The notes under the pieces: model-generated
Told to the model about the DNA's origin: nothing
Seen by the model: only the letters and a program-made list of their open reading frames with translations
The model's database searches: none
Position numbers and translations under genes: made by a program
Part shown: positions 15,434-29,061 of the stretch, one piece after another
Layout: every line of letters begins with the position of its first letter
Numbering within the stretch: position 1 is the stretch's first letter
Source of the DNA: Chroococcidiopsis sp. TS-821
Lineage (GTDB): Bacteria; Cyanobacteriota; Cyanobacteriia; Cyanobacteriales; Chroococcidiopsidaceae
Length of the DNA: 64,000 nt
Direction of reading: 5' to 3'
Assembly (NCBI RefSeq): GCF_002939305.1
Contig: NZ_MVDI01000011.1
Coordinates: 1 to 64,000 of the forward strand

Positions 15434-15551
15434 TCGAAGTATCAGCCACTTGCTAATTGCCAAATTAAAGCGCGTTATTGAGGTTGAAGCGAAAGGGGAT
15501 TGTCGTTGATAATAGTTGCAAAACGACTTGATCATCTCTCGGCATCAAACT

Positions 15552-18500
15552 GTGACAGAACCAGGAAGCTACAAAGATACTGTTAATCTGCCTAAAACCA
15601 ATTTTGACATGCGAGCAAACGCAACAAAGCGCGAGCCAGAAATTCAAAAGTTTTGGGCAGAAAACCAAATATACGATCGCCTGTCGCAGAACAACCCTGG
15701 CGAGTTATTTGTTTTGCACGACGGTCCTCCCTACGCTAACGGTGCGTTGCATCTCGGTCACGCGCTTAACAAAATTCTCAAAGACATTATCAACCGATTT
15801 CAGTTATTGCAAGGACGTAAGGTTCGCTACGTTCCGGGTTGGGATTGTCACGGATTGCCGATTGAACTCAAAGTGTTACAAAACATGAAGGCAGCCGAGC
15901 GGCAAAACCTGACGCCTCTCGAGTTGCGGCGCAAAGCCAAAGCGTTTGCCTTGGCGACAGTTGAGGAACAAAGCAAAAGTTTCCAACGCTACGGAGTTTG
16001 GGGGGATTTTGACAATCCTTATCTAACACTAAATCCTGCATATGAGGCAGCGCAAATCGGTGTATTCGGGCAAATGGTGTTAAAAGGCTACATCTATCGC
16101 GGTCTGAAGCCTGTCCATTGGAGTCCTAGTTCAAAAACGGCACTGGCAGAAGCCGAACTAGAGTATCCTGAAGGTCACACCTCACGGAGCCTTTATGCAG
16201 CTTTTCCTGTGACGCGTCTTTCTGAAGCTGCTTCAGCATTAGGCGAATTTATGCCGCATCTCAGTGTAGCCATCTGGACAACCACGCCTTGGACAATTCC
16301 AGCTAACTTAGCGGTAGCTGTTAATCCAGAGTTAACTTATGCGGTTGTTGAAGTTGCTAACAACGAGCAACCTAAATACATAATCGTAGCCACTGACTTA
16401 GTAGAACGCTTGTCACAGATTCTCGCAAGCAATCTCACAATTAAAGCGAAAGTAAGTGGCAAGGATTTAGAACACACAATTTATCGCCATCCCCTCTTTG
16501 ACCGCGAAAGTCCAGTAGTGATAGGTGGCGATTATGTAACCACCGAGTCAGGAACAGGCTTAGTCCACACCGCACCAGGTCACGGACAAGACGACTACAT
16601 CGTCGGTCAGCGGTACGGTCTGCCAATTTTAGCACCCGTCGATGCTGATGGAAATTTTACCGCCGAAGCCGGACAATTTGCCGGCATGAATGTCCTCGGC
16701 GATGGCAACGCTGCCGTGATTGAGGCACTATCTGCAGCAGGGGCGTTACTCAAAGAAGAACCGTACGTTCACAAATACCCCTACGATTGGCGGACAAAAA
16801 AACCAACAATCTTCCGCGCCACTGAACAATGGTTCGCCTCCGTAGACGGATTTCGCGATGCCGCACTCAAGGCGATCGCTGAGGTAAAGTGGATTCCGGC
16901 GATTGGTGAAAACCGAATTACTGCGATGGTATCGGAGCGTTCTGATTGGTGCATTTCGCGACAACGCAGTTGGGGCGTCCCAATTCCTGTATTCTACGAC
17001 GAAGAAACTGGCGAAGCACTACTCAACGCAGAAACGATCGCGCACGTGCAAGCCATCGTCGCCGAAAAGGGTACGGACGCCTGGTGGGAATTATCAACCG
17101 AAGAACTCTTACCAGAAAGCTACCGCAACAATGGTCGGTCGTACCGCAAAGGGACAGATACGATGGACGTGTGGTTCGATTCAGGTTCCTCGTGGGCAGC
17201 AGTATTGCAACAGCGTCCAGAGTTGCGCTACCCAGCAGATATGTATTTAGAAGGCTCAGATCAACATCGCGGTTGGTTTCAGTCGAGTTTACTCACCAGC
17301 GTCGCTGTCAATGGTTGTGCGCCATACAAAACCGTCTTAACGCACGGTTTTACCGTCGACGAGCAAGGTCGCAAAATGAGCAAATCGCTCGGCAATGGCA
17401 TCGAACCAGAAGTCGTAATTAACGGCGGGAAAAATCAAAAAGAAGAACCTGCCTACGGCGCTGACGTGCTGCGGCTGTGGGTATCATCCGTTGATTACAC
17501 CGCCGACGCGCCGCTGAGTAAAAATATCCTCAAGCAATTGTCCGAGGCGTATCGCAAGATTCGCAACACAGCAAGGTTCTTATTGGGTAATCTACATGAT
17601 TTTGACCCGATTAAGCATTCTGTAGCTTACGAACAATTGCCCGAACTCGACCGCTACATGCTCCACAGGATAACAGAAGTCTTTCAAGAGATCGGCGAGG
17701 CGTTTGAAAATTACCAATTTTTCCGCTTCTTCCAAACAGTGCAGAATTTCTGCGTGGTGGATTTGTCAAACTTCTACTTAGATATTGCCAAAGACCGACT
17801 CTACATTAGCGCGCCCGATGCTTGGCGGCGGCGCAGCTGTCAAACCGTGTTGCACGTCGCGCTGGAAAACTTAGCAAAAGCGATCGCGCCAGTACTGTGT
17901 CACATGGCAGAAGATATTTGGCAGCACCTTCCCTATCCGACGCCGTACAAATCCGTCTTTGAAGCCGGTTGGGTGAAGTTAGAAAAACAGTGGTACCAAC
18001 CACAACTCGCAGATTCCTGGCAAAAACTGCGACAACTGCGCGCCGAGGTGAATAAAGTCCTCGAACAAGCACGCGTCGAGAAAACGATCGGCTCTTCCCT
18101 CGAAGCCAAGGTGTTGCTGTACGTTCCTAATGCTGCTTTCAAGGCGCAGTTACAAACATTAAACCCCGGTACGGCGCAAAGCTTAGCGACGGCTCCACAG
18201 CCCATAACAGAAACAACAGCACTGGTAACGCAACCGTCCAAAACTTGGCAACAGTACTTAGCAGAACTTGTGCAGCCCTTTAAGCGATCGCCAGCATACT
18301 TACGCGACGTGTTAAAGGTATACCGCGAACTTTGGATAATCGCTGTTGTGCTAGCGGCGTTTCCTTTAGTTGTATTACCGCTTGGTTTGTTAAAAGCCGT
18401 ACTCGTCGGTGTTAATGAGATTCCGCTGCTACCGCGCGTTTTCCAGCTCATCGGCATTTATGCAACGCTGCGCTACTTACTAGTAGCATTTATGCGTATT

Positions 18501-18845
18501 GCGTTATCGCAAAAATCAAAAGCGCCAACGACTCTAACAGAATCGCTTTCTCAAACGATATCAGTCCCTGAAGAACAGGCGACAACTCCATCGACACGTC
18601 AATCTAACGGTGTAGACGAGCTGCGCTATTTGTTCATTGCTTCGCAGGTAGAACTTGTCGATTCGCCAGCAGCAGTACAACAAGCAAAGTACAACTTACA
18701 AACCGACGAACTCGCTATTGGCGTAGTTAACGCCGATGGCAAGAAGTGCGATCGCTGTTGGAATTACTCAGTGCATGTCGGCGACTCTGTGGAACATCCG
18801 TTGATTTGCGAGCGCTGCGTTTCGGCGTTAGCAGGCAACTTTTAA
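15552..18845 (+). CDS. ileS: Isoleucyl-tRNA synthetase carrying a CAAD membrane-anchor insertion
   Basis: Class I synthetase that charges tRNA-Ile. The HIGH motif appears as [11 protein letters not shown] and the KMSKS loop as [10 protein letters not shown]. The editing-domain region is complete ([28 protein letters not shown]). The C-terminal zinc site is CDRCWNY and CERC. Between the anticodon-binding domain and the zinc finger (about residues 875-1018, nt 18176-18605) lies an insertion with an amphipathic segment and two hydrophobic helices ([20 protein letters not shown] and a second around [14 protein letters not shown]). This is the cyanobacterial aminoacyl-tRNA synthetase appended domain (CAAD), known to tether such enzymes to thylakoids. 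The longest frame starts at TTG 15516; I prefer GTG 15552, which gives [19 protein letters not shown], the usual cyanobacterial N-terminus. Confidence 0.95.
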
Positions 18846-18847
18846 AA

Positions 18848-18908
18848 GGTAACAGGTAATTGGTAACTGGTAAATATCTTTTTTCTCATTACCGATTACC
18901 CATTACCG
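18848..18908. repeat. Opposed heptamer repeats (STRR) at the ileS/parA junction
   Basis: Four tandem heptamers GGTAACA, GGTAATT, GGTAACT and GGTAAAT (18848-18875) are followed by a T-rich spacer and then three heptamers of the complementary type, ATTACCG, ATTACCC and ATTACCG (18888-18908). The two arrays are roughly inverted, so the RNA could fold into a long imperfect hairpin with T-runs, a plausible bidirectional terminator. The right-hand array also encodes the last codons of parA. Confidence 0.7.
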
Positions 18909-19827
18909 ATACCGATTGCGTTTGCTGTTGCTCGCTACCAGCAACTTGCAATTTCTGTAAAAACTCTTGCGTTATTTGAGTAAATGCTTTAGCCCCTGCT
19001 GATTGTGGATTTGTCATCACAACGGGCATAAAACTATCAACGGCTTTAGCAACATTGACATCAGTAGGTATTTGTGTCTTAAAAATTTGTGTTGCCTCAA
19101 AATCCTCGTTAATTCGTTGCATTACTTGTTTGTAGTATCTACCTGTAATTAAATTACCTGACATTGTAAAGACAATACCCAATAATTGAATATTTAGATT
19201 TACCTCGGATGCATGACTTTCTTTAAGTTGAGCAATGCGTCTTTCTAGTAACTGAATACCCACTATTGACAAAGGCTCAGATTTGGCAGGTAGGATATAG
19301 AAGTTACTTGCCGCAAGCGCACTGCGCGTCATCAAATTGTAACCAGGAGCGCAGTCAAGAATAATAAAATCATAATTTTCGAGAACAGGCTCTAAAATCT
19401 GTTTAACTAATCTTCTTTCAAAGCGGTTCCATACAGTTGCAAAATCAAGTCTATCGACCTCAAATGCTTCTTCATGCAGCATTTCAGAAACAACAAATTC
19501 ATCGTAGAGCTCGATATCACCAGGTAATAAATCGAGATTAGGAAGCTTGCACGCATTGTAGTGAATTGCTTCTTTCACGCTAATCTTAGAGCGTGTTTCT
19601 GGTTGAATAGCTTGATTAATTAGATATTTCAAAGTTCGCTTTGTTTTGCGATACTTAGCGAAATCTGTCGGGGACATCATACTCAAGGTAGCACTAATTT
19701 GAGTATCTAAATCGAAAACAAGAACTTTTTTACCATGATCTTTGGCGAGTGAAGTCGCTAAATTGACACTTAGTGTCGTTTTTCCTACACCACCTTTCAT
19801 GTTTGCTGTTGCAATGATATAAGCCAT
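18889..19827 (-). CDS. ParA/Soj-family ATPase (orphan)
   Basis: Walker-type ATPase of the ParA/MinD superfamily, which positions DNA or protein cargo on the nucleoid. The deviant Walker A is KGGVGKTTLSVNLA (about residues 11-24). The A' motif is VLVFDLDTQISAT, and YDFIILDCAPGYNLMTRSAL carries Walker B. The 312-residue protein has no N-terminal DNA-binding extension, so it resembles Type Ib or orphan ParA proteins. No parB and no parS-like repeats were seen next to it, so its cargo is unknown. The C-terminus (MGNR) is encoded within a heptamer repeat array. It is divergent from azoR, and an AGGA sits about ten bases before the ATG. Confidence 0.88.
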   Translation of the reverse strand: MAYIIATANMKGGVGKTTLSVNLATSLAKDHGKKVLVFDLDTQISATLSMMSPTDFAKYRKTKRTLKYLINQAIQPETRSKISVKEAIHYNACKLPNLDLLPGDIELYDEFVVSEMLHEEAFEVDRLDFATVWNRFERRLVKQILEPVLENYDFIILDCAPGYNLMTRSALAASNFYILPAKSEPLSIVGIQLLERRIAQLKESHASEVNLNIQLLGIVFTMSGNLITGRYYKQVMQRINEDFEATQIFKTQIPTDVNVAKAVDSFMPVVMTNPQSAGAKAFTQITQEFLQKLQVAGSEQQQTQSVSVMGNR

Positions 19828-20648: not shown

Positions 20649-23279
20649 TTATCCCAGTTGAATCGTTTTGGCAAATAAGCTTTGTAAGCGATGTAGTTGC
20701 GCGCCATTTTGGTAGAGTAAGTCACCTTTACCAAGTAAATAAGCTGCCGAAGTTTGTTTTCCTCCTAAGATAATTGCTGAATCAGCCTCACTAGCAGTTC
20801 GTAGCGCAATTCTCCCTGGTAAATTAGAGCGGATGATGGGAGTCACGACTTTGGCTTCAGGACGTTGCGTAGCAATAATCAGATGAATTCCGGCGGCTCT
20901 AGCCATAGCACCTAACCTCTTAATACTTTGTTCAAGTGCGTTGCGGCTCTCTTTTTCTGCCATAAAATCGGCATACTCATCAAAAATACAGACAATGCGG
21001 AAAAGTCGGGAGTGCGTTTTCTGATTGTAGCTAGTTAAGTCAGCACATCCTACTGCTTCAAACTGTTGATAGCGCTGTTCCATCTCTCCCACAAGTTGCT
21101 CCATCAATTCAATTGCCTGCTCGGTATCCTTAACTACAGGAGAATAGAGCGATCGCATCTGTTCAAATTCTGGAAACGTAACTCGCTTAGGATCGACAAG
21201 CGCCACTTTGAGGGAATCTGGCGAGTGGCGGACTACGAGACTGAGAAGAAGCGATCGCAAAAACTCGCTTTTACCGCTACCAGTTGTTCCACCAACTAAA
21301 AAGTGACAAGTATTCGGGTCGGATAAATCAGCTTCTACGAGTCTTCTCTCTAAATTTACTCCTAGAGCAACTTTTACGGGAGCATCAGCAGGTAAAACTT
21401 GCGATTGCACATAATCAGCAAAACTCGCAACTTGTCGATCTTGACGCGGTAAATCGACACTGATATACCCCGCTTGTGGTGTAATTAAAGGCGGATTAGT
21501 AATTCCTAACTGTACTTGTAAATCATTTGCTAAGCGTAAAATGGAAACAACTTTTATCCCTGCATGAGGCTTAATTTTTACGCGCACAAATGCAGGTCCA
21601 ATTGCTGCACCTTGGTAGTCTACGCCAAGACCAAAAGATTGTAGTGTCTCGACTAACTTTTCTCCTGTTCGCTCGATGTTGAAAGTCGCCGCTTCGTGTT
21701 GTTCTAAATCTTGATTTAGGCTATCGAGTTGTTGATTGTCTTGAGTATGTGGCGACGGTGCTGGGGACTTAAAGCGTTCTGCTGCGATCGCTTCATCACT
21801 ATCAAAAAAGATTTGGCATTTCTTCTGTTGCGGACAAATATGACACAAATAGGGCTGACTTGTCGGTGGTGGTGGGTTGAGTTGCGGTGGTTTCCACGCT
21901 AACCATTGCTGCATTTGCTGCAGTTTTTGGGGAACAAGTTGATGTATGGTTGTTTCAAGCTGTTCCCATGTAAAACTCAGTTCTTGCAGGTTGGGTAACA
22001 CGCTATAAACTGCCGAATTAATCTTGACACCTACGGTTTTGCGTAGCATGTAGCTGTAGAGCGCAACTTGCGCAAGCTGGGCTGATTGATCTACTGACTG
22101 ATACGATTTATACTCCACGACTCGCAATCGCTGAGTAGCAAAATCGTAAACAATGCTGTCGCATCTGCCTTTGACTAACTGCTGCGTGCCATTAGGTAAA
22201 GTAAAATAGTGCTGAACGTTGAGTTCTTGTGCTAGAAAAGTTTTAGAAATAACGTCTTTTGCCGTACAATAACGGCGATTACTAACTAATAATTCTGCCC
22301 AACGGCGAATCAGTTCAACTAATCCCAACCAAAGCTGGTGTAATGCAGGTGCTTTTCCGGGGTCTTTCTGAATTGATGCTTGCAAGTAAGGAAAGAATAC
22401 ACGCTCATATAATAGTTGTTGCAGTGCAGCAGCGATCGCGTCTACCTCTAACTGTTCAACCACAGGTTCAAACAAAGCAGAAAATCGCGAATCTTGCTTT
22501 GCTACATTAATAAATTGATTTGATAGATCGTGAAATGCTGTCCCAATCCCAATCGCTGTATCTACGGGTAAGAAAAGTGTCATTCCCCCAAAGCGATACC
22601 CCAAGTAAAATAATCGCGGACACTCAAAGGCTACTCTGACATTAGTTACACTTAAAGAAGAATTTTCAGTTATAGATCCTGACATATTATTCGTAAGCTC
22701 AGAGTTACTTCTTGCGATTTCGATTAAACGGCGATGGACATGAGCTAGATACACTGTGTCCATCTTGGCATACTGTAACTGCTTTGGCGTTAAAGGTCGC
22801 CGTCCCCAATTACTTCCCTGTTCTTCCCGATCTATATTGACAAAGTGACAAAGTTCTGATGCTAAAGTCTTTAATTTTAAATCGGTAACAGATAAAGATT
22901 TTTTAACTAATTTTTTAGCAAGCGTCCAAGTACAGCTAATATTTTTTGCCGATTCTTTTCCAAGAAACCTCAAATCATAATTAGCGTTGTGAAAAACTTT
23001 TTCGATTTTGGCATCGGTCACGATCTCATCAATAAAATAGCTAATTAATTCAGGCTTATCTAGTACATCTAAAATAATTGTAGAATTTCCTGTACAATCT
23101 TCAGAATTACTTAAAACCTGAATGAGAGATAACCGAGGATGAGCAGTCATATAATCAGCCACCTCGGTATCCAACCAAAGAATATTTTTAGTAGTTAATT
23201 CGTCAATGAATGCACGAATTTCATGTTCTTCGGTAAGATAAGATAATTGTCTTAAATTACTATAAGAAACTGAATTCAT
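20649..23279 (-). CDS. RNase D-like exonuclease / Cas4-like nuclease / FtsK motor fusion
   Basis: Three enzymatic modules in one 876-residue chain. Residues 20-195 are a DEDDy exonuclease like RNase D: LWLDTEVADY (D37, E39), VFHNANYDLRFLG and YAKMDTVYL. Residues 210-490 form a PD-(D/E)XK nuclease of Cas4/RecB type: FECPRLFYLGYRFGG, KGRCDSIVYD, VVEYKS, QVALYSYML and a closing CHICPQQKKC. With the earlier cysteine, four cysteines could hold an Fe-S cluster. From about 550 an FtsK/SpoIIIE motor follows: a beta-domain block around KPHAGIKVV, Walker A GGTTGSGKSEFL, VDPKRVTF, Walker B CIFDEYADF and GIHLIIATQRPEA. It has no membrane or gamma domain. The start at 23279 overlaps the preceding stop as ATGA, which decides it over the longer frame at 23300. 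A role in DNA processing or defence is inferred. Confidence 0.85.
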   Translation of the reverse strand: MNSVSYSNLRQLSYLTEEHEIRAFIDELTTKNILWLDTEVADYMTAHPRLSLIQVLSNSEDCTGNSTIILDVLDKPELISYFIDEIVTDAKIEKVFHNANYDLRFLGKESAKNISCTWTLAKKLVKKSLSVTDLKLKTLASELCHFVNIDREEQGSNWGRRPLTPKQLQYAKMDTVYLAHVHRRLIEIARSNSELTNNMSGSITENSSLSVTNVRVAFECPRLFYLGYRFGGMTLFLPVDTAIGIGTAFHDLSNQFINVAKQDSRFSALFEPVVEQLEVDAIAAALQQLLYERVFFPYLQASIQKDPGKAPALHQLWLGLVELIRRWAELLVSNRRYCTAKDVISKTFLAQELNVQHYFTLPNGTQQLVKGRCDSIVYDFATQRLRVVEYKSYQSVDQSAQLAQVALYSYMLRKTVGVKINSAVYSVLPNLQELSFTWEQLETTIHQLVPQKLQQMQQWLAWKPPQLNPPPPTSQPYLCHICPQQKKCQIFFDSDEAIAAERFKSPAPSPHTQDNQQLDSLNQDLEQHEAATFNIERTGEKLVETLQSFGLGVDYQGAAIGPAFVRVKIKPHAGIKVVSILRLANDLQVQLGITNPPLITPQAGYISVDLPRQDRQVASFADYVQSQVLPADAPVKVALGVNLERRLVEADLSDPNTCHFLVGGTTGSGKSEFLRSLLLSLVVRHSPDSLKVALVDPKRVTFPEFEQMRSLYSPVVKDTEQAIELMEQLVGEMEQRYQQFEAVGCADLTSYNQKTHSRLFRIVCIFDEYADFMAEKESRNALEQSIKRLGAMARAAGIHLIIATQRPEAKVVTPIIRSNLPGRIALRTASEADSAIILGGKQTSAAYLLGKGDLLYQNGAQLHRLQSLFAKTIQLG

Positions 23280-25366
23280 TTTGAGTTTGGCACTAAGCAA
23301 ATAAGTTGGGCTTCGGGCTTAGCATTAGGATCGAGAATTTGTAGCTTGTTTTCTTGACAGAGTTTAGCAATCAAATCTGCAACTTGTATTTCATCTACTG
23401 GTAACGAAGAAAAGCGATCGAGTGTATTTTGTACTAATGTATTTCGTCCTAAAAAATGCTGTGTTGTAACCAAATTCATTATGAATTCTGTCACAGGTTC
23501 CAAGTTTACCTGTTTAGGATTGGGATTTGAAGGTTGTTCAGCAAGAACTCCTATAACCTGTAGTAAAGTACAATATTTTAGTACCTGGGATTTGCGTACG
23601 AAAGCTTGTAATTCGTTCAAATTAGGAATTTTATCCCGAATAACTAATTCTCTAGAACTTACTGCATTGACTAAACTGTGATAAGTTGCCAAGTAGTGCA
23701 CTGACGTAAGGTCTGGTACAATGTGGCAGTGTGGAGCTCCAGCAAAAATTTGTTTATAAGTTTGATAACCTTGAGTCTTATTGCTACCTAACGCTTCTGC
23801 ACGTATCAAAAACAAGGTTTGACAAAGGTTTTTCTCCACAGCTTTTTGACAGCCTTTCATCACGTGGAAAAAACTGGTCATATTTGGATCTTCCATCCAA
23901 ACAATTCCACATTTTTTTTGCTGTGGTGACACGTAACTGAGTGAATAACTCGTGTATGTAGGGCTGGGTAAAAATCGCGGTTTAGTTTTTATGTTTAAAG
24001 CTTCCAGTGCTTCGCGTAACATTTGAATTAACTCAGGCGAAGATAATTGGCGAATCCGCGTAACTTTTTGTTCAATTTTCTGTAATTCTTTACTCCAAAT
24101 AAGCTGAAAAGCAGCTAATAGCTCTTGGTTTTCATCTATTTCCTCAATTTTTTTATATTCTGGTTGCAAGATCGTAGAGGAATTGATGATTTTTTGCTTA
24201 TTAGTTGTAGGATTTGATTTAGGAGTTGATGTCGGCTTTGTATTTTCAGAAATTAATAACTTTGACTTATAAAGCTGAAATAATTGCCTTCCTAGACTTA
24301 ATACATCACGAGGTAATGTTTTACCACCTGGGTATTTATCTTCTAAAAATTGTCGATTTAAGGGATAAATTGGAGAAGAAGGTAGTTTGTCAGCTTGTTG
24401 ATGTAGTAGAAAAAGCCGCGATCTCCAAAGTGCTTCTGCTTGCTCTAGATTAATTGATTTTAATTTAATATAAGTATCTATTCTAGCGACATCTGCTCCT
24501 TGAATGCCGTCTTTATTGCGTATCCAAGTATTAGTAATAATGCTAATAAGTATCAAAAAGTTAGGAATATACTGGTTATGAAGCATTGAATTAAAATCAA
24601 ACAATGCTTGAAAGTTACGCAAACCATTTGACGAATAAGGAATATTATCTAAATTATCAAAACATAGGACAATTGGTTGAGTTTGAGATGATATTTTGCC
24701 AAGATTAAACAATATATTTTGTGCTGCTTCTTCTGAATCAATGGCTTGTTTAACTTTTAAGACTTTTAATGCATCTTCATCTAAGTTATCTCCGCGTAGC
24801 CAATCACAGGCAAGAAAATGCGTTTCTGGATTCAATAAATCATGAAGTACGCCAAAAAACTCGCGAGCATTATAAATATCTGTAGGAAAACTAGCTCTAA
24901 GTTTATTGATAAAAGCTTGGCGATCGCCTATTAATCTATCGATTAGACTGCGTTGTTTAAAAATTGATAAACTCTTGAGCCATAAGAGTAACTGTGATTC
25001 TTGTTGTCCTTCTGGAACTTTAAGTAAACTATCAACAGTTTGACGTAAAATGTGTCGCCAAATAAAATTACTATCAGCCCAAGGATCTATGTAAACAAAA
25101 AATGCTTTAGAGTTCAATGCTTGCTTTAGCCTACCTAAAAGATGGCTTTTACCTGAACCAGAATCACCAGCTAGTAAGACAGTACGCGTCCGGCGATCTT
25201 TTGCTACTTGAGCTAGAATGCTCTCGATTATAGTAATTGCTTCTTGGTGAATTGAGTTGACATTTAATGCTGGGTCTTGTTGTTCTTGCCAAAAGTTACC
25301 AGGTTTGAACGTTGCGGGATCGAAGGGATTAACCTCGCGTTGGATAACTCGATCTATAGATGCCAT
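23276..25366 (-). CDS. AAA+-like P-loop ATPase with C-terminal unrecognised domain
   Basis: Middle gene of the three-gene operon, about 696 residues. It has a Walker A LLAGDSGSGKSHLLGRL (about residues 64-80), a Walker B IVLCFDNLDNI (about 235), a sensor-like FLILISIITNTWIRN, and LPRDVLSLGRQLF, which recalls the lid of Orc1/Cdc6-type or STAND ATPases. A charged linker with a KPTSTPKSNPTT stretch follows. The C-terminal 250 residues include GIVWMEDPNMTSFFHVMKGC and may combine a nuclease-like alpha/beta domain with a winged helix; neither could be named. The longest frame begins at 25402. I prefer ATG 25366 (MASIDRVIQREVNPF) because AAAGGTAGCAGG lies just before it. Its stop overlaps the next start by four bases, which implies coupled translation. 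Confidence 0.8.
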   Translation of the reverse strand: MASIDRVIQREVNPFDPATFKPGNFWQEQQDPALNVNSIHQEAITIIESILAQVAKDRRTRTVLLAGDSGSGKSHLLGRLKQALNSKAFFVYIDPWADSNFIWRHILRQTVDSLLKVPEGQQESQLLLWLKSLSIFKQRSLIDRLIGDRQAFINKLRASFPTDIYNAREFFGVLHDLLNPETHFLACDWLRGDNLDEDALKVLKVKQAIDSEEAAQNILFNLGKISSQTQPIVLCFDNLDNIPYSSNGLRNFQALFDFNSMLHNQYIPNFLILISIITNTWIRNKDGIQGADVARIDTYIKLKSINLEQAEALWRSRLFLLHQQADKLPSSPIYPLNRQFLEDKYPGGKTLPRDVLSLGRQLFQLYKSKLLISENTKPTSTPKSNPTTNKQKIINSSTILQPEYKKIEEIDENQELLAAFQLIWSKELQKIEQKVTRIRQLSSPELIQMLREALEALNIKTKPRFLPSPTYTSYSLSYVSPQQKKCGIVWMEDPNMTSFFHVMKGCQKAVEKNLCQTLFLIRAEALGSNKTQGYQTYKQIFAGAPHCHIVPDLTSVHYLATYHSLVNAVSSRELVIRDKIPNLNELQAFVRKSQVLKYCTLLQVIGVLAEQPSNPNPKQVNLEPVTEFIMNLVTTQHFLGRNTLVQNTLDRFSSLPVDEIQVADLIAKLCQENKLQILDPNAKPEAQLICLVPNSK

Positions 25367-25413
25367 CCTGCTACCTTTATGAGAATAAACAGCAAAAAAC
25401 ATTTAATTGTGAC

Positions 25414-26241
25414 TTAGTTCACAGTAATGAAAAATAATGGTCCACCGATATTTTGAGGAATTCCTGCATCAATTTGTTCTGGAGTATAAGCAGTAACTTC
25501 CTGTAAAGAACTCAATTCGATTTGATCGTTGCGTTGTAAACGATACAATATTTCATCAAGTTGCTGACGAGAAATTACAGAAGTAAGCTTCTGGCGTAAA
25601 TGAAAAATTGGTAAGTAGTTTTCTGTACCTAATTCTCGATCTAATTTTTGAATGATTTCGAGAACTTCTAAATCGTTAAGCTGCTGATTTTGTGTTGTTG
25701 GTAGTTTAGCTGATAAAGCTTGAGTATCTATATTGGAGTTAAAGCTTCTACGTATAAAGCGTAAATAGTGACTCAGTAAATCTAAACTGATGACAGGTTG
25801 AACTCCTTTCTTAGGAATATATTCGTCTCTTAAATGCGCTTTACCTTGTTCAGATAGCCAGACTTCTTTAACTTTAGTCTCTACTTCGATCAAACCGCGT
25901 TCAGCTAATCCTTGAATCACTGCTTGGCGTTCGGAAGCGGGAACCCCTGTCTCTCCTGGCGAAATCTTTTTATTTTCACACGCTTTCAAGGCTTTGAGTT
26001 CATCTTGAGTAACTGGTACTTGTGTCTGAGTTAATTTCAATAAAGCTTTTCCAGGAGGCGCAATCTTAAGCTTTGTGACTTCGTAGGAACATTCTACTAA
26101 ACCGCGATCGCATAGTTGACGACAAATTTTTTTTCTTTCTGAGGTCTTGGTTTTATTACCCAAATTTATTTCAGTCAAGGGTGCGCGGTAATTAGCAAAA
26201 CTGAGTAATCTTAGCAGAAACTTTAGTTCAATTGTTTCCAT
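25414..26241 (-). CDS. Tandem winged-helix protein, first gene of the nuclease/FtsK operon
   Basis: Family not recognised; 275 residues. Three helix-rich modules with a winged-helix pattern can be read. The first covers about residues 5-65 (KKICRQLCDRGLVECSYEVT then LKIAPPGKALL). The second covers 78-140 (RQAVIQGLAERGLIEVETK then VWLSEQGKAHL). The third covers about 200-275 (LDEILYRLQRNDQIELSSL then an aromatic, Pro/Gly-rich end). Each shows a recognition-helix, turn and beta-wing order as in MarR-like folds. It leads the operon, 47 bp before the ATPase start, and an AAGGTAAAGG ribosome-binding site precedes its ATG. It may recognise DNA for the complex or regulate the operon; neither is shown. 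Confidence 0.72.
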   Translation of the reverse strand: METIELKFLLRLLSFANYRAPLTEINLGNKTKTSERKKICRQLCDRGLVECSYEVTKLKIAPPGKALLKLTQTQVPVTQDELKALKACENKKISPGETGVPASERQAVIQGLAERGLIEVETKVKEVWLSEQGKAHLRDEYIPKKGVQPVISLDLLSHYLRFIRRSFNSNIDTQALSAKLPTTQNQQLNDLEVLEIIQKLDRELGTENYLPIFHLRQKLTSVISRQQLDEILYRLQRNDQIELSSLQEVTAYTPEQIDAGIPQNIGGPLFFITVN

Positions 26242-26754: not shown

Positions 26755-29061
26755 ATGTCAAAGCGCAAACGTAAATTAACAACAAGCAACACACTCCACA
26801 ACATATCTTTTCCCAAGTCAAACTTGAACTATCGGCAAAAAAAAGAGTGGATTGCAGCTCTATTGGTCATTACGTTGTTGTTGAGTGCTGGGGGTTTAGT
26901 TGTAAGCAGTACGTGGTTGATTTATGGATTATTTTTTGACCCAAATGCGATCGCATCCTTAAATCAATTCTTACCGCAGTGGGCGCAGCTACCAATAATT
27001 CAAGAACCAACGAAAACGCTAGCGCAAATTTCAGCAGAGTTAAGCCGACAAGGAAAAGTTGCTGGAAAACCTCTACCGTTAGAAATTAATTCTGCTAATT
27101 CGCAACCAACGTCTGTCATCTTACCCGTGCGATCGCAAAATCAGATTGTTGAGTTGCGCGTGTATCGCATCACAGACGCTAAAACCCTTCTCAATCAGCC
27201 AAGTCGTGAAATCCGCTATCAGTTGGTGACTCAAGTTGACGTGACAGGACCTGAAGAGTCATTTGTTGTCGCACCGCTTGTCGATCCAGAAACCGCAGAT
27301 ACAAGTTCAAATCGTCCTTTACCTGTAACCGAATTGCGAAGATTTGACAGTACCACCCCAACTCAAGGAATGTGGTTTTATCTTTGGGGACAACGCCAAC
27401 GAGGACACGCGATCGCCTACGGTCAAATTGTCCACTACAACCCCGACCGCTCGTACCTTAGTTTGATGTTACCCTGGACAAGCCCGACTCAACCGCAATG
27501 GCAACAAGCGATCGCCGGAGGTTCTCCAGAATTAGTTATCGATCAAACTGTAGATTTAGAACCGCGATTACAAGTTTATCAAGTTAAACCCGCGAACTTT
27601 ATCTTCGATCCACTGCAACTCGAACCTGTTTCCATCGCTGAACCAGCCTTAGACAGTCGCGACTATCAAAATGCGTTACTCATTGCGCGTAGTGGGTTGT
27701 GGACACCCGCCGAGAAATGGTTGCAGTTTATTAAACAACAACGCCAAAAACGTCAAGCCTGGTCAAGCGCAGCGCAGGCACAACTCGATTTTATTCGACT
27801 ACACGCCCAAAAAAGCCAAAAGCAAGCAAATCAAACTTGGGCAAGCCCCAGTCAACAAGTACTCACTTTTATAATTGATGGGCGTTGGGGAGAGGCGCTA
27901 AAAGTTTTTCAAGCTTCACCGACGAATACGCAAGAAATTACAACTTTGTTGACAACAGATAATGGACGAATCAAAAATCGCGTCGAAGTTGCTTTACGTG
28001 TTAACCCCAAACGAACTGAAGTTAAAGCTTGGGGGGCGCTACTCAAAGGCGCACAAGAAGATCGAAGAAGTGCGATCGCTTGGCTAAAACAGCAACCACA
28101 AACAACTGCTGCGGATGTTGCTTATATTCAAAGATTCCTTAAACGTTTAGAAGGTGACTTTTCATCAAATAAAGTAACAACTTCTCACCTTAGTCGTTTT
28201 GTTGGTACAGCACAACAAATGACAAAAGTCAATCCAGCGCAATGGCTGCAAATCGATCGAACACCCTTACAAGTCACAGACGAGCAAACGTGGTATCAAA
28301 TCGAACTCCACGCTTACCACGACGGTGACACTTGGCAACATGCACCATTTAAGTTAACACCATCAAAAACTGCAGCTCAATACTGGCAACAATTAGGTTT
28401 AAGCTCAGATGCTGAAGTTCAAATTGTTTCCTGGCTACCTGGCGGACATCAGCAAATCGATCTCGCCGTTGTCAAAGCTGTGCAGTTACAAGGTAATACG
28501 CTGAAGCTATTAGCTGTATCGGATACATTTCCATTAGTTGATTCCGCTGCACGACAACTCGCACTTACCAAAACAACTTTACAGTGGTTGCAACCAGAGA
28601 CGATTGCATTATCCGATCTCACTCAACAACCGCAGCCTGTTGAAGTTGTAGAGATTTTGCCAAAACTCTGGCAGGAGTTGCAACGCCACAACCCAAATCT
28701 GCAAAACTCTGTCCCAAATGTCGAGAAAATGCTACAGCAACTCGGAGAATTACCTGTGCAGTTAATCGACCTAACTGGTGATGGAACAGCGGAAGTGATG
28801 ATGACTATTTCCCCTCAGGAAATTGCGGCTGTTCATAATTTTGAGCCTAACCTACTGCAATCGCACAACCGTGACTCGCGATCGCGCACGATTATTTTTT
28901 CAGCTACCGGAAAGTTAATTTACAACGAGTTTAGCGGAGCTTCTGAGCAAACTGCGATCGCGATCGCCGATCTCGAAGACGAACTTCCTGCATTACTAGT
29001 TGCTACTGGCAAAAGCTATATTTTTAAGCGCTGGTCTAGTCAATACCAACGCTTTGATTAA
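26755..29061 (+). CDS. Large membrane-anchored cyanobacterial protein
   Basis: No named family was recognised. The 768-residue protein has a basic cytoplasmic N-terminus (MSKRKRKLTTSNT) and a single hydrophobic segment near residues 33-60 (ALLVITLLLSAGGLVVSSTW). A long, Gln- and Trp-rich exoplasmic region follows. The middle section (about 300-480) is helical, with regularly spaced Trp and Gln residues suggestive of helical-repeat pairs. Near the C-terminus IDLTGDGTAEVMM resembles the calcium-binding loop of FG-GAP/VCBS-type repeats. It is probably anchored in the plasma or thylakoid membrane with its bulk in the periplasm or lumen. It is divergent from the nuclease/FtsK operon and is not obviously related to it. 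Confidence 0.75.
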   Translation: MSKRKRKLTTSNTLHNISFPKSNLNYRQKKEWIAALLVITLLLSAGGLVVSSTWLIYGLFFDPNAIASLNQFLPQWAQLPIIQEPTKTLAQISAELSRQGKVAGKPLPLEINSANSQPTSVILPVRSQNQIVELRVYRITDAKTLLNQPSREIRYQLVTQVDVTGPEESFVVAPLVDPETADTSSNRPLPVTELRRFDSTTPTQGMWFYLWGQRQRGHAIAYGQIVHYNPDRSYLSLMLPWTSPTQPQWQQAIAGGSPELVIDQTVDLEPRLQVYQVKPANFIFDPLQLEPVSIAEPALDSRDYQNALLIARSGLWTPAEKWLQFIKQQRQKRQAWSSAAQAQLDFIRLHAQKSQKQANQTWASPSQQVLTFIIDGRWGEALKVFQASPTNTQEITTLLTTDNGRIKNRVEVALRVNPKRTEVKAWGALLKGAQEDRRSAIAWLKQQPQTTAADVAYIQRFLKRLEGDFSSNKVTTSHLSRFVGTAQQMTKVNPAQWLQIDRTPLQVTDEQTWYQIELHAYHDGDTWQHAPFKLTPSKTAAQYWQQLGLSSDAEVQIVSWLPGGHQQIDLAVVKAVQLQGNTLKLLAVSDTFPLVDSAARQLALTKTTLQWLQPETIALSDLTQQPQPVEVVEILPKLWQELQRHNPNLQNSVPNVEKMLQQLGELPVQLIDLTGDGTAEVMMTISPQEIAAVHNFEPNLLQSHNRDSRSRTIIFSATGKLIYNEFSGASEQTAIAIADLEDELPALLVATGKSYIFKRWSSQYQRFD

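What the first reader, a model, noticed from the sequence alone, without database searches (positions are those of the whole stretch)
20649..26241. Three-gene operon: tandem winged-helix protein, AAA+-like ATPase, and exonuclease/Cas4-like/FtsK fusion
The minus-strand genes are tightly packed: a 47 bp gap, then an ATGA stop/start overlap. Their domains form a self-sufficient DNA machine: a DNA-recognition candidate, a switch ATPase, and a motor fused to two nucleases. Motor-plus-nuclease pairs (HerA-NurA, HerA with a nuclease, DptFGH) are known in DNA repair and defence. I do not recall this three-gene architecture in any named system. The neighbours are an orphan parA and azoR rather than housekeeping genes of one pathway. 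The operon is a credible undescribed defence or genome-processing system; function is inferred, domain content is seen.
Basis: partly seen in the sequence, partly recalled or inferred. Interest (0 to 1): 0.88.

Follow-up and report, generated by a model that had tools for sequence, protein, structure and literature searches.

The report
Cyanobacterial Orc-FtsK-nuclease DNA capture operon
Three neighbouring genes in a cyanobacterium encode a DNA-binding protein, an origin-recognition-like ATPase and a DNA-pumping motor fused to two nucleases; together they fit a class of anti-invader systems already predicted from genomes in print, for which I found no bench test.

Summary
Genes A (275 aa), B (696 aa) and C (876 aa) lie head to tail on the minus strand, with a 47-bp gap and an ATGA overlap. 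A is modelled as three winged helices. B is an Orc/Cdc6-type AAA+ ATPase with a nuclease-like middle domain lacking D...ExK residues and a C-terminal winged helix. C fuses a DEDDy exonuclease, a Cas4-like nuclease, FtsK-alpha and an FtsK motor, with conserved active-site motifs. A preceded B in 38 of 40 loci and C followed B in 29 of 40; B and C co-occur in 50 of 388 genomes (65 have B, 52 C), in two of them unlinked. The parts match the Orc/CDC6-coupled 'HerA/FtsK capture systems' of Rakesh, Aravind and Krishnan (NAR 2024), so 'undescribed' is not supported. It is not SspFGH: the large SspH part is missing and DndC does not track the operon. In several families the operon sits at an old chromosomal spot beside parA, with loss in place. 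Most likely it finds, reels in and degrades invading DNA; function is inferred. A role in host-DNA maintenance remains a minority rival.

The parts
25414..26241 (-). gene A, 275 aa, three predicted winged helices; first gene of the operon
   Evidence: ORF; model, mean pLDDT 75.2, pTM 0.49; N-terminal part like MarR-type proteins, Z up to 10.0; residues 185-275 like the ScpA C-terminal winged helix, Z 8.0
26038..26235 (-). A, winged helix 1 (residues 3-68)
   Evidence: my reading of the model's secondary structure
25819..26007 (-). A, winged helix 2 (residues 79-141)
   Evidence: my reading of the model's secondary structure
25417..25674 (-). A, winged helix 3 (residues 190-275), lower confidence at the end
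   Evidence: rows 40 and 50 (kleisin winged helices)
23276..25366 (-). gene B, 696 aa, Orc/Cdc6-type AAA+ ATPase
   Evidence: AAA_16 6.2e-9; model, mean pLDDT 80.7, pTM 0.58; ORC/Cdc6 and TnsC folds, Z to 15.5
24242..25366 (-). B, AAA+ core and lid (residues 1-375), Walker A and Walker B present
23555..24133 (-). B, restriction-endonuclease-like alpha/beta domain (residues 412-604) without conserved D...ExK; proposed inactive REase
   Evidence: topology of the model; conservation; not confirmed by profile comparison
23294..23500 (-). B, C-terminal winged helix (residues 623-691)
   Evidence: several ORC alignments run from the AAA+ part to residues 692-696
20649..23279 (-). gene C, 876 aa, exonuclease / Cas4-like nuclease / FtsK fusion; ATGA overlap with B
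22725..23237 (-). C, DEDDy 3'-5' exonuclease domain (residues 15-185)
   Evidence: DTE, D and Y...D motifs conserved
21813..22658 (-). C, Cas4/RecB-like PD-(D/E)XK nuclease (residues 208-489) with four conserved cysteines
   Evidence: a D, E-x-K and four cysteines conserved
21447..21728 (-). C, FtsK alpha domain (residues 518-611)
20859..21389 (-). C, FtsK/SpoIIIE motor (residues 631-807), Walker A GGTTGSGKSEF and Walker B FDEYADFM conserved; only PF01580 match in this genome
18889..19827 (-). parA-like gene: conserved neighbour of the locus, present also without the operon; not counted as a component

Best explanation
The operon is a member of the Orc/CDC6-coupled class of HerA/FtsK capture systems: an accessory DNA-interception machine, not tied to phosphorothioate modification, most likely directed at invading plasmids and phages. 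Proposed working: A (three winged helices) reads some feature of DNA; B, an Orc/Cdc6-like AAA+ with a nuclease-like but probably inactive middle domain and a winged helix, assembles on that DNA under ATP control and recruits C; C forms an FtsK-type ring that pumps double-stranded DNA towards its own Cas4-like nuclease and DEDDy exonuclease, which cut and degrade it. Shown here: domain content, conserved catalytic motifs, folds of A and B by model, conserved order, co-occurrence also in two genomes where C is unlinked, lack of coupling to DndC. Inferred: complex formation, translocation, nuclease activity, that the target is foreign DNA. Not known: how host DNA is spared; no modification gene is in the operon.
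For: Domain match to the published class. A preceded B in 38 of 40 loci and C followed B in 29 of 40, once (L067) with a DUF29 gene between them; 19 of the 29 C genes carry the exonuclease, 9 lack it, 1 is split. The 40 loci come from 40 of the 65 genomes with B, picked by me. B in 65, C in 52, both in 50 of 388 genomes (Fisher p 7.5e-47, relatedness not corrected, lists copied at E <= 1e-40 and <= 1e-100). Kept together when unlinked: G143 and G283 have C far from A-B. A sister trio A'-B'-X with another third gene (DUF1802 in 4 of 4 scanned, with a sub-cut-off Mrr nuclease match in 3 of the 4) at 11 of 11 weak-B loci looked at. On a plasmid of Pseudanabaena PCC 7367 typed as conjugative. Patchy and lost in place: genus g10, 6 of 8 genomes with B and C, 1 with B alone, 1 with neither; C remnants L110, L112 and A alone in L139 at the parA locus.
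Against: No phage or plasmid challenge exists. In several families the locus keeps one chromosomal place instead of hopping. PADLOC scan of 72 near and 72 far neighbours (samples of 168 and 115): 86 against 17 models matched at E <= 1e-10, but each model listed hit one member only, many are variants of one family, and the output does not count distinct members, so no island is shown; near neighbours also include housekeeping genes. No self/non-self mark was found. The inactive-REase reading of B rests on model topology; profile comparison with the REase part of X or with C's nuclease was not significant. 15 of 65 genomes with B have no C hit; of these G003, G066, G254 and G386 break off at a contig end behind B, the others lack C as far as sampled.
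Confidence: 0.66

Rival explanations
1. Host-genome maintenance module: with the neighbouring ParA it handles the cell's own multicopy chromosomes (segregation, copy control or repair of broken ends), C being the only FtsK-type motor in a phylum that mostly lacks FtsK.
For: C is the only PF01580 match in the window's genome; 83 of 116 genomes of the class have none over the cut-off; a parA relative lies within about 3 kb of C, or of B in G205, in 12 of the 25 B-bearing genomes among the 62 order members examined; conserved location with ileS and the 26755 protein in several. A review says an FtsK homologue was so far identified only in Anabaena and its table puts one on a plasmid (PMC7766704, passages).
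Against: ParA is in 56 of 62 genomes, also where the operon is absent, and parA and ileS stand within about 6 kb without it (L130, L131, L132, L134, L140). 323 of 388 genomes lack strong B, it is lost within a genus, and one copy is on a plasmid. Lack of FtsK is common in the class without any replacement.
Confidence: 0.14
2. Phosphorothioate-guided restriction, i.e. a diverged SspFGH or DndFGH partner of a PT modification system.
For: C's motor matches the SspH C-terminus (E 1.1e-65); the genome has a full-length DndC; the three-part make-up (Walker ATPase, another protein, FtsK-ended protein) is alike (PMC8092258, passages).
Against: DndC is common in the order with or without the operon: over the cut-off in 20 of 22 operon or A-B carriers against 29 of 37 genomes without strong B; outside the order in 1 of 18 carriers. 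C lacks the about 1,380-residue N-terminal part of SspH; true SspH occurs separately in other cyanobacteria. Motor tree sets four cyanobacterial SspH apart (100/100). SspBCD themselves were not searched.
Confidence: 0.06
3. Plasmid- or transposon-derived transfer/partition module kept as a remnant, without a defence role.
For: In three motor trees C groups with FtsK of two cyanobacterial plasmids and/or a cyanophage (94/88; 95/92 with the plasmids and 88/81 with the phage); TnsC-like fold of B.
Against: Grouping of C with cellular FtsK is not rejected (p-AU 0.24), long branches meet, and within the group the order of C and the mobile-element motors is unresolved; two nucleases with conserved active-site motifs, and no relaxase, transposase or recombinase among the three genes.
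Confidence: 0.08

Closest known systems
Orc/CDC6-coupled HerA/FtsK capture systems (Rakesh, Aravind, Krishnan, NAR 2024, PMC10853773)
   Same: Orc/CDC6 AAA+ with a domain inserted before a C-terminal wHTH, active REase, FtsK-alpha plus FtsK; in subsets a separate multi-wHTH protein or a 3'-5' exonuclease fused to the motor
   Different: Here the active nuclease is Cas4-like with four cysteines and fused in one chain with exonuclease and motor; the main text names neither cyanobacteria nor Cas4, and its supplement could not be read, so whether these very loci were listed is unknown
SspFGH (mBio 2021, PMC8092258)
   Same: three genes, Walker-motif ATPase, FtsK-like C-terminus; SspH model aligns with C 510-855
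   Different: no large SspH N-terminus, no coupling to DndC seen, motors on separate branches
DndFGH / DptFGH
   Same: ATPase plus small protein plus HerA/FtsK protein (recalled); weak P-loop match of B to DndF (5.6e-4)
   Different: no DndG/DptG or DndH/DptH match in the listings; DndC does not track the operon
A'-B'-X trio seen here
   Same: homologous first two genes in the same order
   Different: third gene is a DUF1802 protein with a weak Mrr-like match and no motor; may be the REase-ASCH variant mentioned in the same paper (that DUF1802 is ASCH-like is my guess)
BREX-related capture (BRC) systems (PMC12839542, passages seen)
   Same: HerA/FtsK with Orc/Cdc6-type ATPase and wHTH DNA-binding protein
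   Different: no PglZ, DUF6079, DUF4007, GNAT or TGT among the three genes

Membership tests
Orc/CDC6-coupled HerA/FtsK capture system | Orc/CDC6-family AAA+ ATPase | tested here: met
   B model: ORC, Cdc6/Orc1 and TnsC are the top folds (E to 1.6e-5; Z 15.5, rmsd 16.9 over 318 for 7jgr_G and Z 14.6, rmsd 3.4 over 238 for 2qby_B)
Orc/CDC6-coupled HerA/FtsK capture system | inactive REase between the AAA+ core and the C-terminal wHTH | tested here: inconclusive
   model has the helix-strand pattern of a PD-(D/E)XK core at 412-604 and a winged helix at 623-691; no conserved D...ExK; HHalign against X or C nuclease not significant; domain not folded or searched alone
Orc/CDC6-coupled HerA/FtsK capture system | active REase | tested here: met
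   PDDEXK_1 2.1e-14 with conserved D, E-x-K and four Cys; activity itself not tested; whether it is one of the two families named in the paper could not be tested
Orc/CDC6-coupled HerA/FtsK capture system | HerA/FtsK motor, in one set with FtsK-alpha | tested here: met
   FtsK_alpha and FtsK_SpoIIIE over cut-off
Orc/CDC6-coupled HerA/FtsK capture system | further gene with 2-4 wHTH domains (a subset of operons) | tested here: met
   A: three wHTH in the model by my reading, MarR-like and kleisin-like matches; Foldseek alone gave no match at E <= 0.001; relation to DndG not tested
Orc/CDC6-coupled HerA/FtsK capture system | 3'-5' exonuclease fused to the motor (some members) | tested here: met
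   absent in 9 of 29 adjacent C genes and split in 1
Orc/CDC6-coupled HerA/FtsK capture system | mobile gene neighbourhood | tested here: inconclusive
   one plasmid typed as conjugative, but a fixed chromosomal locus in several families
SspFGH | full-length SspH (about 1,766 aa) | tested here: not met
   only model positions 1380-1736 match
SspFGH | coupling to PT modification | tested here: not met
   DndC over cut-off in 20 of 22 carriers against 29 of 37 without strong B in the order, 1 of 18 carriers outside it; tested with DndC only, not SspBCD
DndFGH / DptFGH | DptF, DptG, DptH homologues | tested here: not met
   TIGR03238 (DptF) 14.9 bits against a cut-off of 50; DndF 5.6e-4 over 39 residues; no G or H protein in the listings
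Cellular FtsK | whole FtsK model score | tested here: not met
   PRK10263 FtsK 153.8 bits against 1566; N-terminus is nuclease
HerA-NurA type | HerA family ATPase | tested here: not met
   DUF87 18.8 bits against a cut-off of 23.2; HerA_antiphage 14.4 against 800; PADLOC HerA models, which have no cut-off, match at 1.6e-8 and weaker, far below FtsK_SpoIIIE
any anti-phage system | measured protection | not testable with these tools
   needs the bench

The most novel reading that the evidence does not exclude
An Orc/Cdc6-led, FtsK-driven exonuclease machine that acts on the host's own multicopy chromosomes together with the neighbouring ParA, supplying in some cyanobacteria the only FtsK-type motor of the cell; defence would then be a side use.
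Probability: 0.12. Interest if true: 0.8.

Novelty: new member of a known kind. Interest (0 to 1): 0.45.

Why it matters
HerA/FtsK capture systems are, as far as the searches made show, predicted only. This operon is compact and complete, B and C are together in about one in eight of the genomes sampled (50 of 388), and it occurs in named strains. Its variants (with and without exonuclease, doubled ATPase, unlinked C, sister trio with another third gene) give a ready comparative set. A test would show whether an origin-recognition-type ATPase can aim a DNA pump at invading DNA, and how self DNA is spared without a modification gene.

Tried and rejected
SspFGH and DndFGH membership was tested and rejected (see Membership tests). 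That DndC is in the window's genome and over its cut-off in 21 of 40 carriers looked like PT coupling until the control showed the same in genomes without the operon. C as a stand-in for a missing cellular FtsK was considered: lack of FtsK is common in the class, so no gap needs filling. ParA as a fourth component was considered and left out because it is nearly universal in the order. Viral contigs: no relative of C (six short peptide patterns only). Phage records: 186 with a match, none covering 80% of C, all under 60% identity. Plasmids: B only in Pseudanabaena PCC 7367. The genome-contig scan found 8 near relatives only. The neighbour scan against PADLOC was not decisive. One search's 25 with / 15 without exonuclease includes rows cut by locus ends (for example L093), so the counts are used instead. 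Paper searches for DUF1802 with defense and for cyanobacteria with FtsK, defense system and Cas4 or with DNA translocase FtsK and phage defense listed nothing on this system by title and abstract. Origin of the motor stays open: plasmid/phage-like favoured, cellular not rejected.
Full report
1. What is there. On the minus strand three genes follow each other: A (25414-26241), B (23276-25366) and C (20649-23279). A and B are 47 bp apart if B starts at ATG 25366; B and C overlap by ATGA. The window is part of a 5.23-Mb genome in 72 contigs, cyanobacterial by its relatives; the nearest named relative found is Gloeocapsopsis crepidinum LEGE 06123, 69% identical in B.

2. Anatomy. C carries a DNA_pol_A_exo1 domain, a PDDEXK_1 nuclease, FtsK_alpha and FtsK_SpoIIIE. 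In the family alignment the exonuclease keeps DTE, D and a Y...D motif (a DEDDy pattern; motif name recalled), the nuclease keeps a D, E-x-K and four cysteines of the Cas4/AddB kind (recalled), and the motor keeps Walker A and B. B matches AAA_16 and KAP models; its model (mean pLDDT 80.7) is an AAA+ domain, an alpha/beta domain with the strand-helix order of a restriction endonuclease by my reading, and a C-terminal winged helix. The best solved folds are ORC, Cdc6/Orc1 and TnsC. The middle domain keeps G-x-x-W-x-E but no D...ExK, so it is probably inactive; the assignment is by topology only, since profile comparison gave nothing. A is modelled as three winged helices (mean pLDDT 75.2, pTM 0.49); its N-terminal part is like MarR proteins (Z to 10.0, rmsd 1.4 over 68) and residues 185-275 like the ScpA C-terminal domain (Z 8.0, rmsd 3.2 over 69).

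3. Conservation. B was sought in 388 genomes of the class: 146 have a match at E <= 1e-3 and 65 one at E <= 1e-40. C at E <= 1e-100 is in 52; both in 50. In 40 fetched loci, from 40 of the 65 genomes, A stands before B in 38 and C follows B in 29, once behind a DUF29 gene. In 11 no C follows; in three of those genomes C is elsewhere (G143 and G283 alone; G184 within a second complete trio). Two B genes in tandem after A occur in L045, L049 and L073-L078, and two B genes also in L079 where no A precedes them; both copies keep Walker A and B in the rows printed. In L076 and L078 such a set stands right before a complete trio.

4. A sister system. Eleven loci of weak B relatives, chosen by me from the list, all show A', B' and a third gene of 432-507 aa. 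Ten of these third proteins are mutually similar. Four were scanned: all four match DUF1802 over its cut-off and three have a weak Mrr_cat match, none over its cut-off; L098, outside the ten, is one of the four. So the first two genes pair with different third genes, as expected of a targeting module with exchangeable effectors; that X is a nuclease is likely, not shown.

5. Where it sits. In f1, f5, f39 and Oscillatoriaceae loci the operon or its parts lie beside a parA-like gene, in many with ileS next to it, and in several with a relative of the 26755-29061 protein on the other side. ParA is in 56 of 62 order members searched, also without the operon. Of 16 ParA regions fetched, 15 from genomes without strong B and one (G378) from a carrier with its trio elsewhere, one (L139) keeps A alone between the same flanks and the others show no A, B or C; L110 and L112 keep only the end of C beside ParA. 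The B tree (quick method, SH-aLRT support only) is clustered by family, yet starred branches split f30 and f38 (f2 and Oscillatoriaceae are also split, but hold several copies per genome), and Pseudanabaena PCC 7367 carries the trio on a plasmid typed as conjugative. I read this as an old locus with repeated loss and some transfer.

6. Not phosphorothioate restriction. C's motor matches the end of SspH, so PT coupling was tested. DndC is over its cut-off in 21 of 40 operon or A-B carriers: 20 of 22 in the order, 1 of 18 outside. Among 37 order members without strong B it is in 29. It follows the order, not the operon. SspH of full length exists in other cyanobacteria, and four of its motors lie on another branch (100/100). 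SspBCD genes were not searched.

7. The motor. C is the only PF01580 match in its genome. In 116 genomes of the class 33 have a match over the cut-off; of the 27 with E <= 1e-8, by my reading of the places, 13 are C, 5 SspH, 3 C remnants and 6 other. A review states that an FtsK homologue was so far identified only in Anabaena, and its table lists one on a plasmid (PMC7766704, passages seen). In trees C falls with FtsK of two cyanobacterial plasmids and of Cylindrospermopsis phage Cr-LKS4 (94/88; 95/92 with the plasmids alone, 88/81 with the phage alone), but a grouping with cellular FtsK is not rejected (p-AU 0.24) and long branches meet.

8. Comparison with print. Rakesh, Aravind and Krishnan (PMC10853773; outline and abstract, sections 22 and 26 read) describe HerA/FtsK capture systems, among them operons with an Orc/CDC6 ATPase holding an inactive REase before its C-terminal wHTH, an active REase, FtsK with FtsK-alpha, in a subset a further 2-4-wHTH gene, and in others a 3'-5' exonuclease on the motor. 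This operon has all of these parts, the inactive REase being the least certain. Their main text does not name cyanobacteria or Cas4; the supplement was not readable. A 2026 paper that cites it as own work extends the class (PMC12839542, passages). No bench test turned up in the two searches aimed at it.

9. Mechanism and verdict. Most likely A and B find and mark DNA, B loads C, and C reels DNA in and degrades it; the target is most likely invading DNA. Shown: parts, motifs, folds by model, order, co-occurrence. Inferred: every activity and the target. Open: how host DNA is spared. Verdict: real, conserved, a member of a predicted class; new as a worked-out cyanobacterial case, not as a kind.

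Noticed in passing
L095-L105: Sister trio A'-B'-X at 11 of 11 weak-B loci looked at; X matches DUF1802 in 4 of 4 scanned, with a sub-cut-off Mrr_cat match in 3. A paper search for DUF1802 with defense found nothing.
   Followed up: partly
L045, L049, L073-L078: A followed by two B-type ATPases in tandem; first and second copies form two separate clades (starred, quick tree), so the pair is old. No C follows directly except in L076 and L078, where a full trio comes next.
   Followed up: partly
window 15516-19827 and L072, L074, L077, L130-L132, L134, L139-L141: parA-like gene and ileS stay within a few kb of each other in several families, with or without the operon.
   Followed up: partly
window 15516-18845: IleRS of 1109 aa has a hydrophobic insert near its C-terminus that looks like the CAAD domain of cyanobacterial tRNA synthetases (recalled, not tested).
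   Followed up: no
genomes; DndC regions L113-L118: DndC is over its cut-off in 52 of 62 genomes of the order (adding the two calls) but in 1 of 18 carriers outside it; its neighbours were fetched but not read.
   Followed up: partly
L074:16776-17705, L077:17113-18042: 309-aa proteins related to C's first domain (the L074 one matches DNA_pol_A_exo1) lie between parA and ileS, a possible source of that domain.
   Followed up: no
L111:2721-9625: Composite locus: A-like gene, DUF559 nuclease, unknown 360-aa protein, 1058-aa AAA_16 plus HerA fusion, and an end piece of a C-type motor.
   Followed up: no
L080:8076-13032: Burkholderia glumae plasmid gene row dndC, small protein, dndD, FtsK: a PT-linked FtsK gene.
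   Followed up: no
L144, L145, L149: FtsK genes sit on Nostocales plasmids and in Cylindrospermopsis phage Cr-LKS4 although 83 of 116 cyanobacterial genomes sampled have no PF01580 match over the cut-off.
   Followed up: partly
L124:8387-11482: In G162 the B gene is in two pieces about 1.1 kb apart, so that copy looks interrupted.
   Followed up: no
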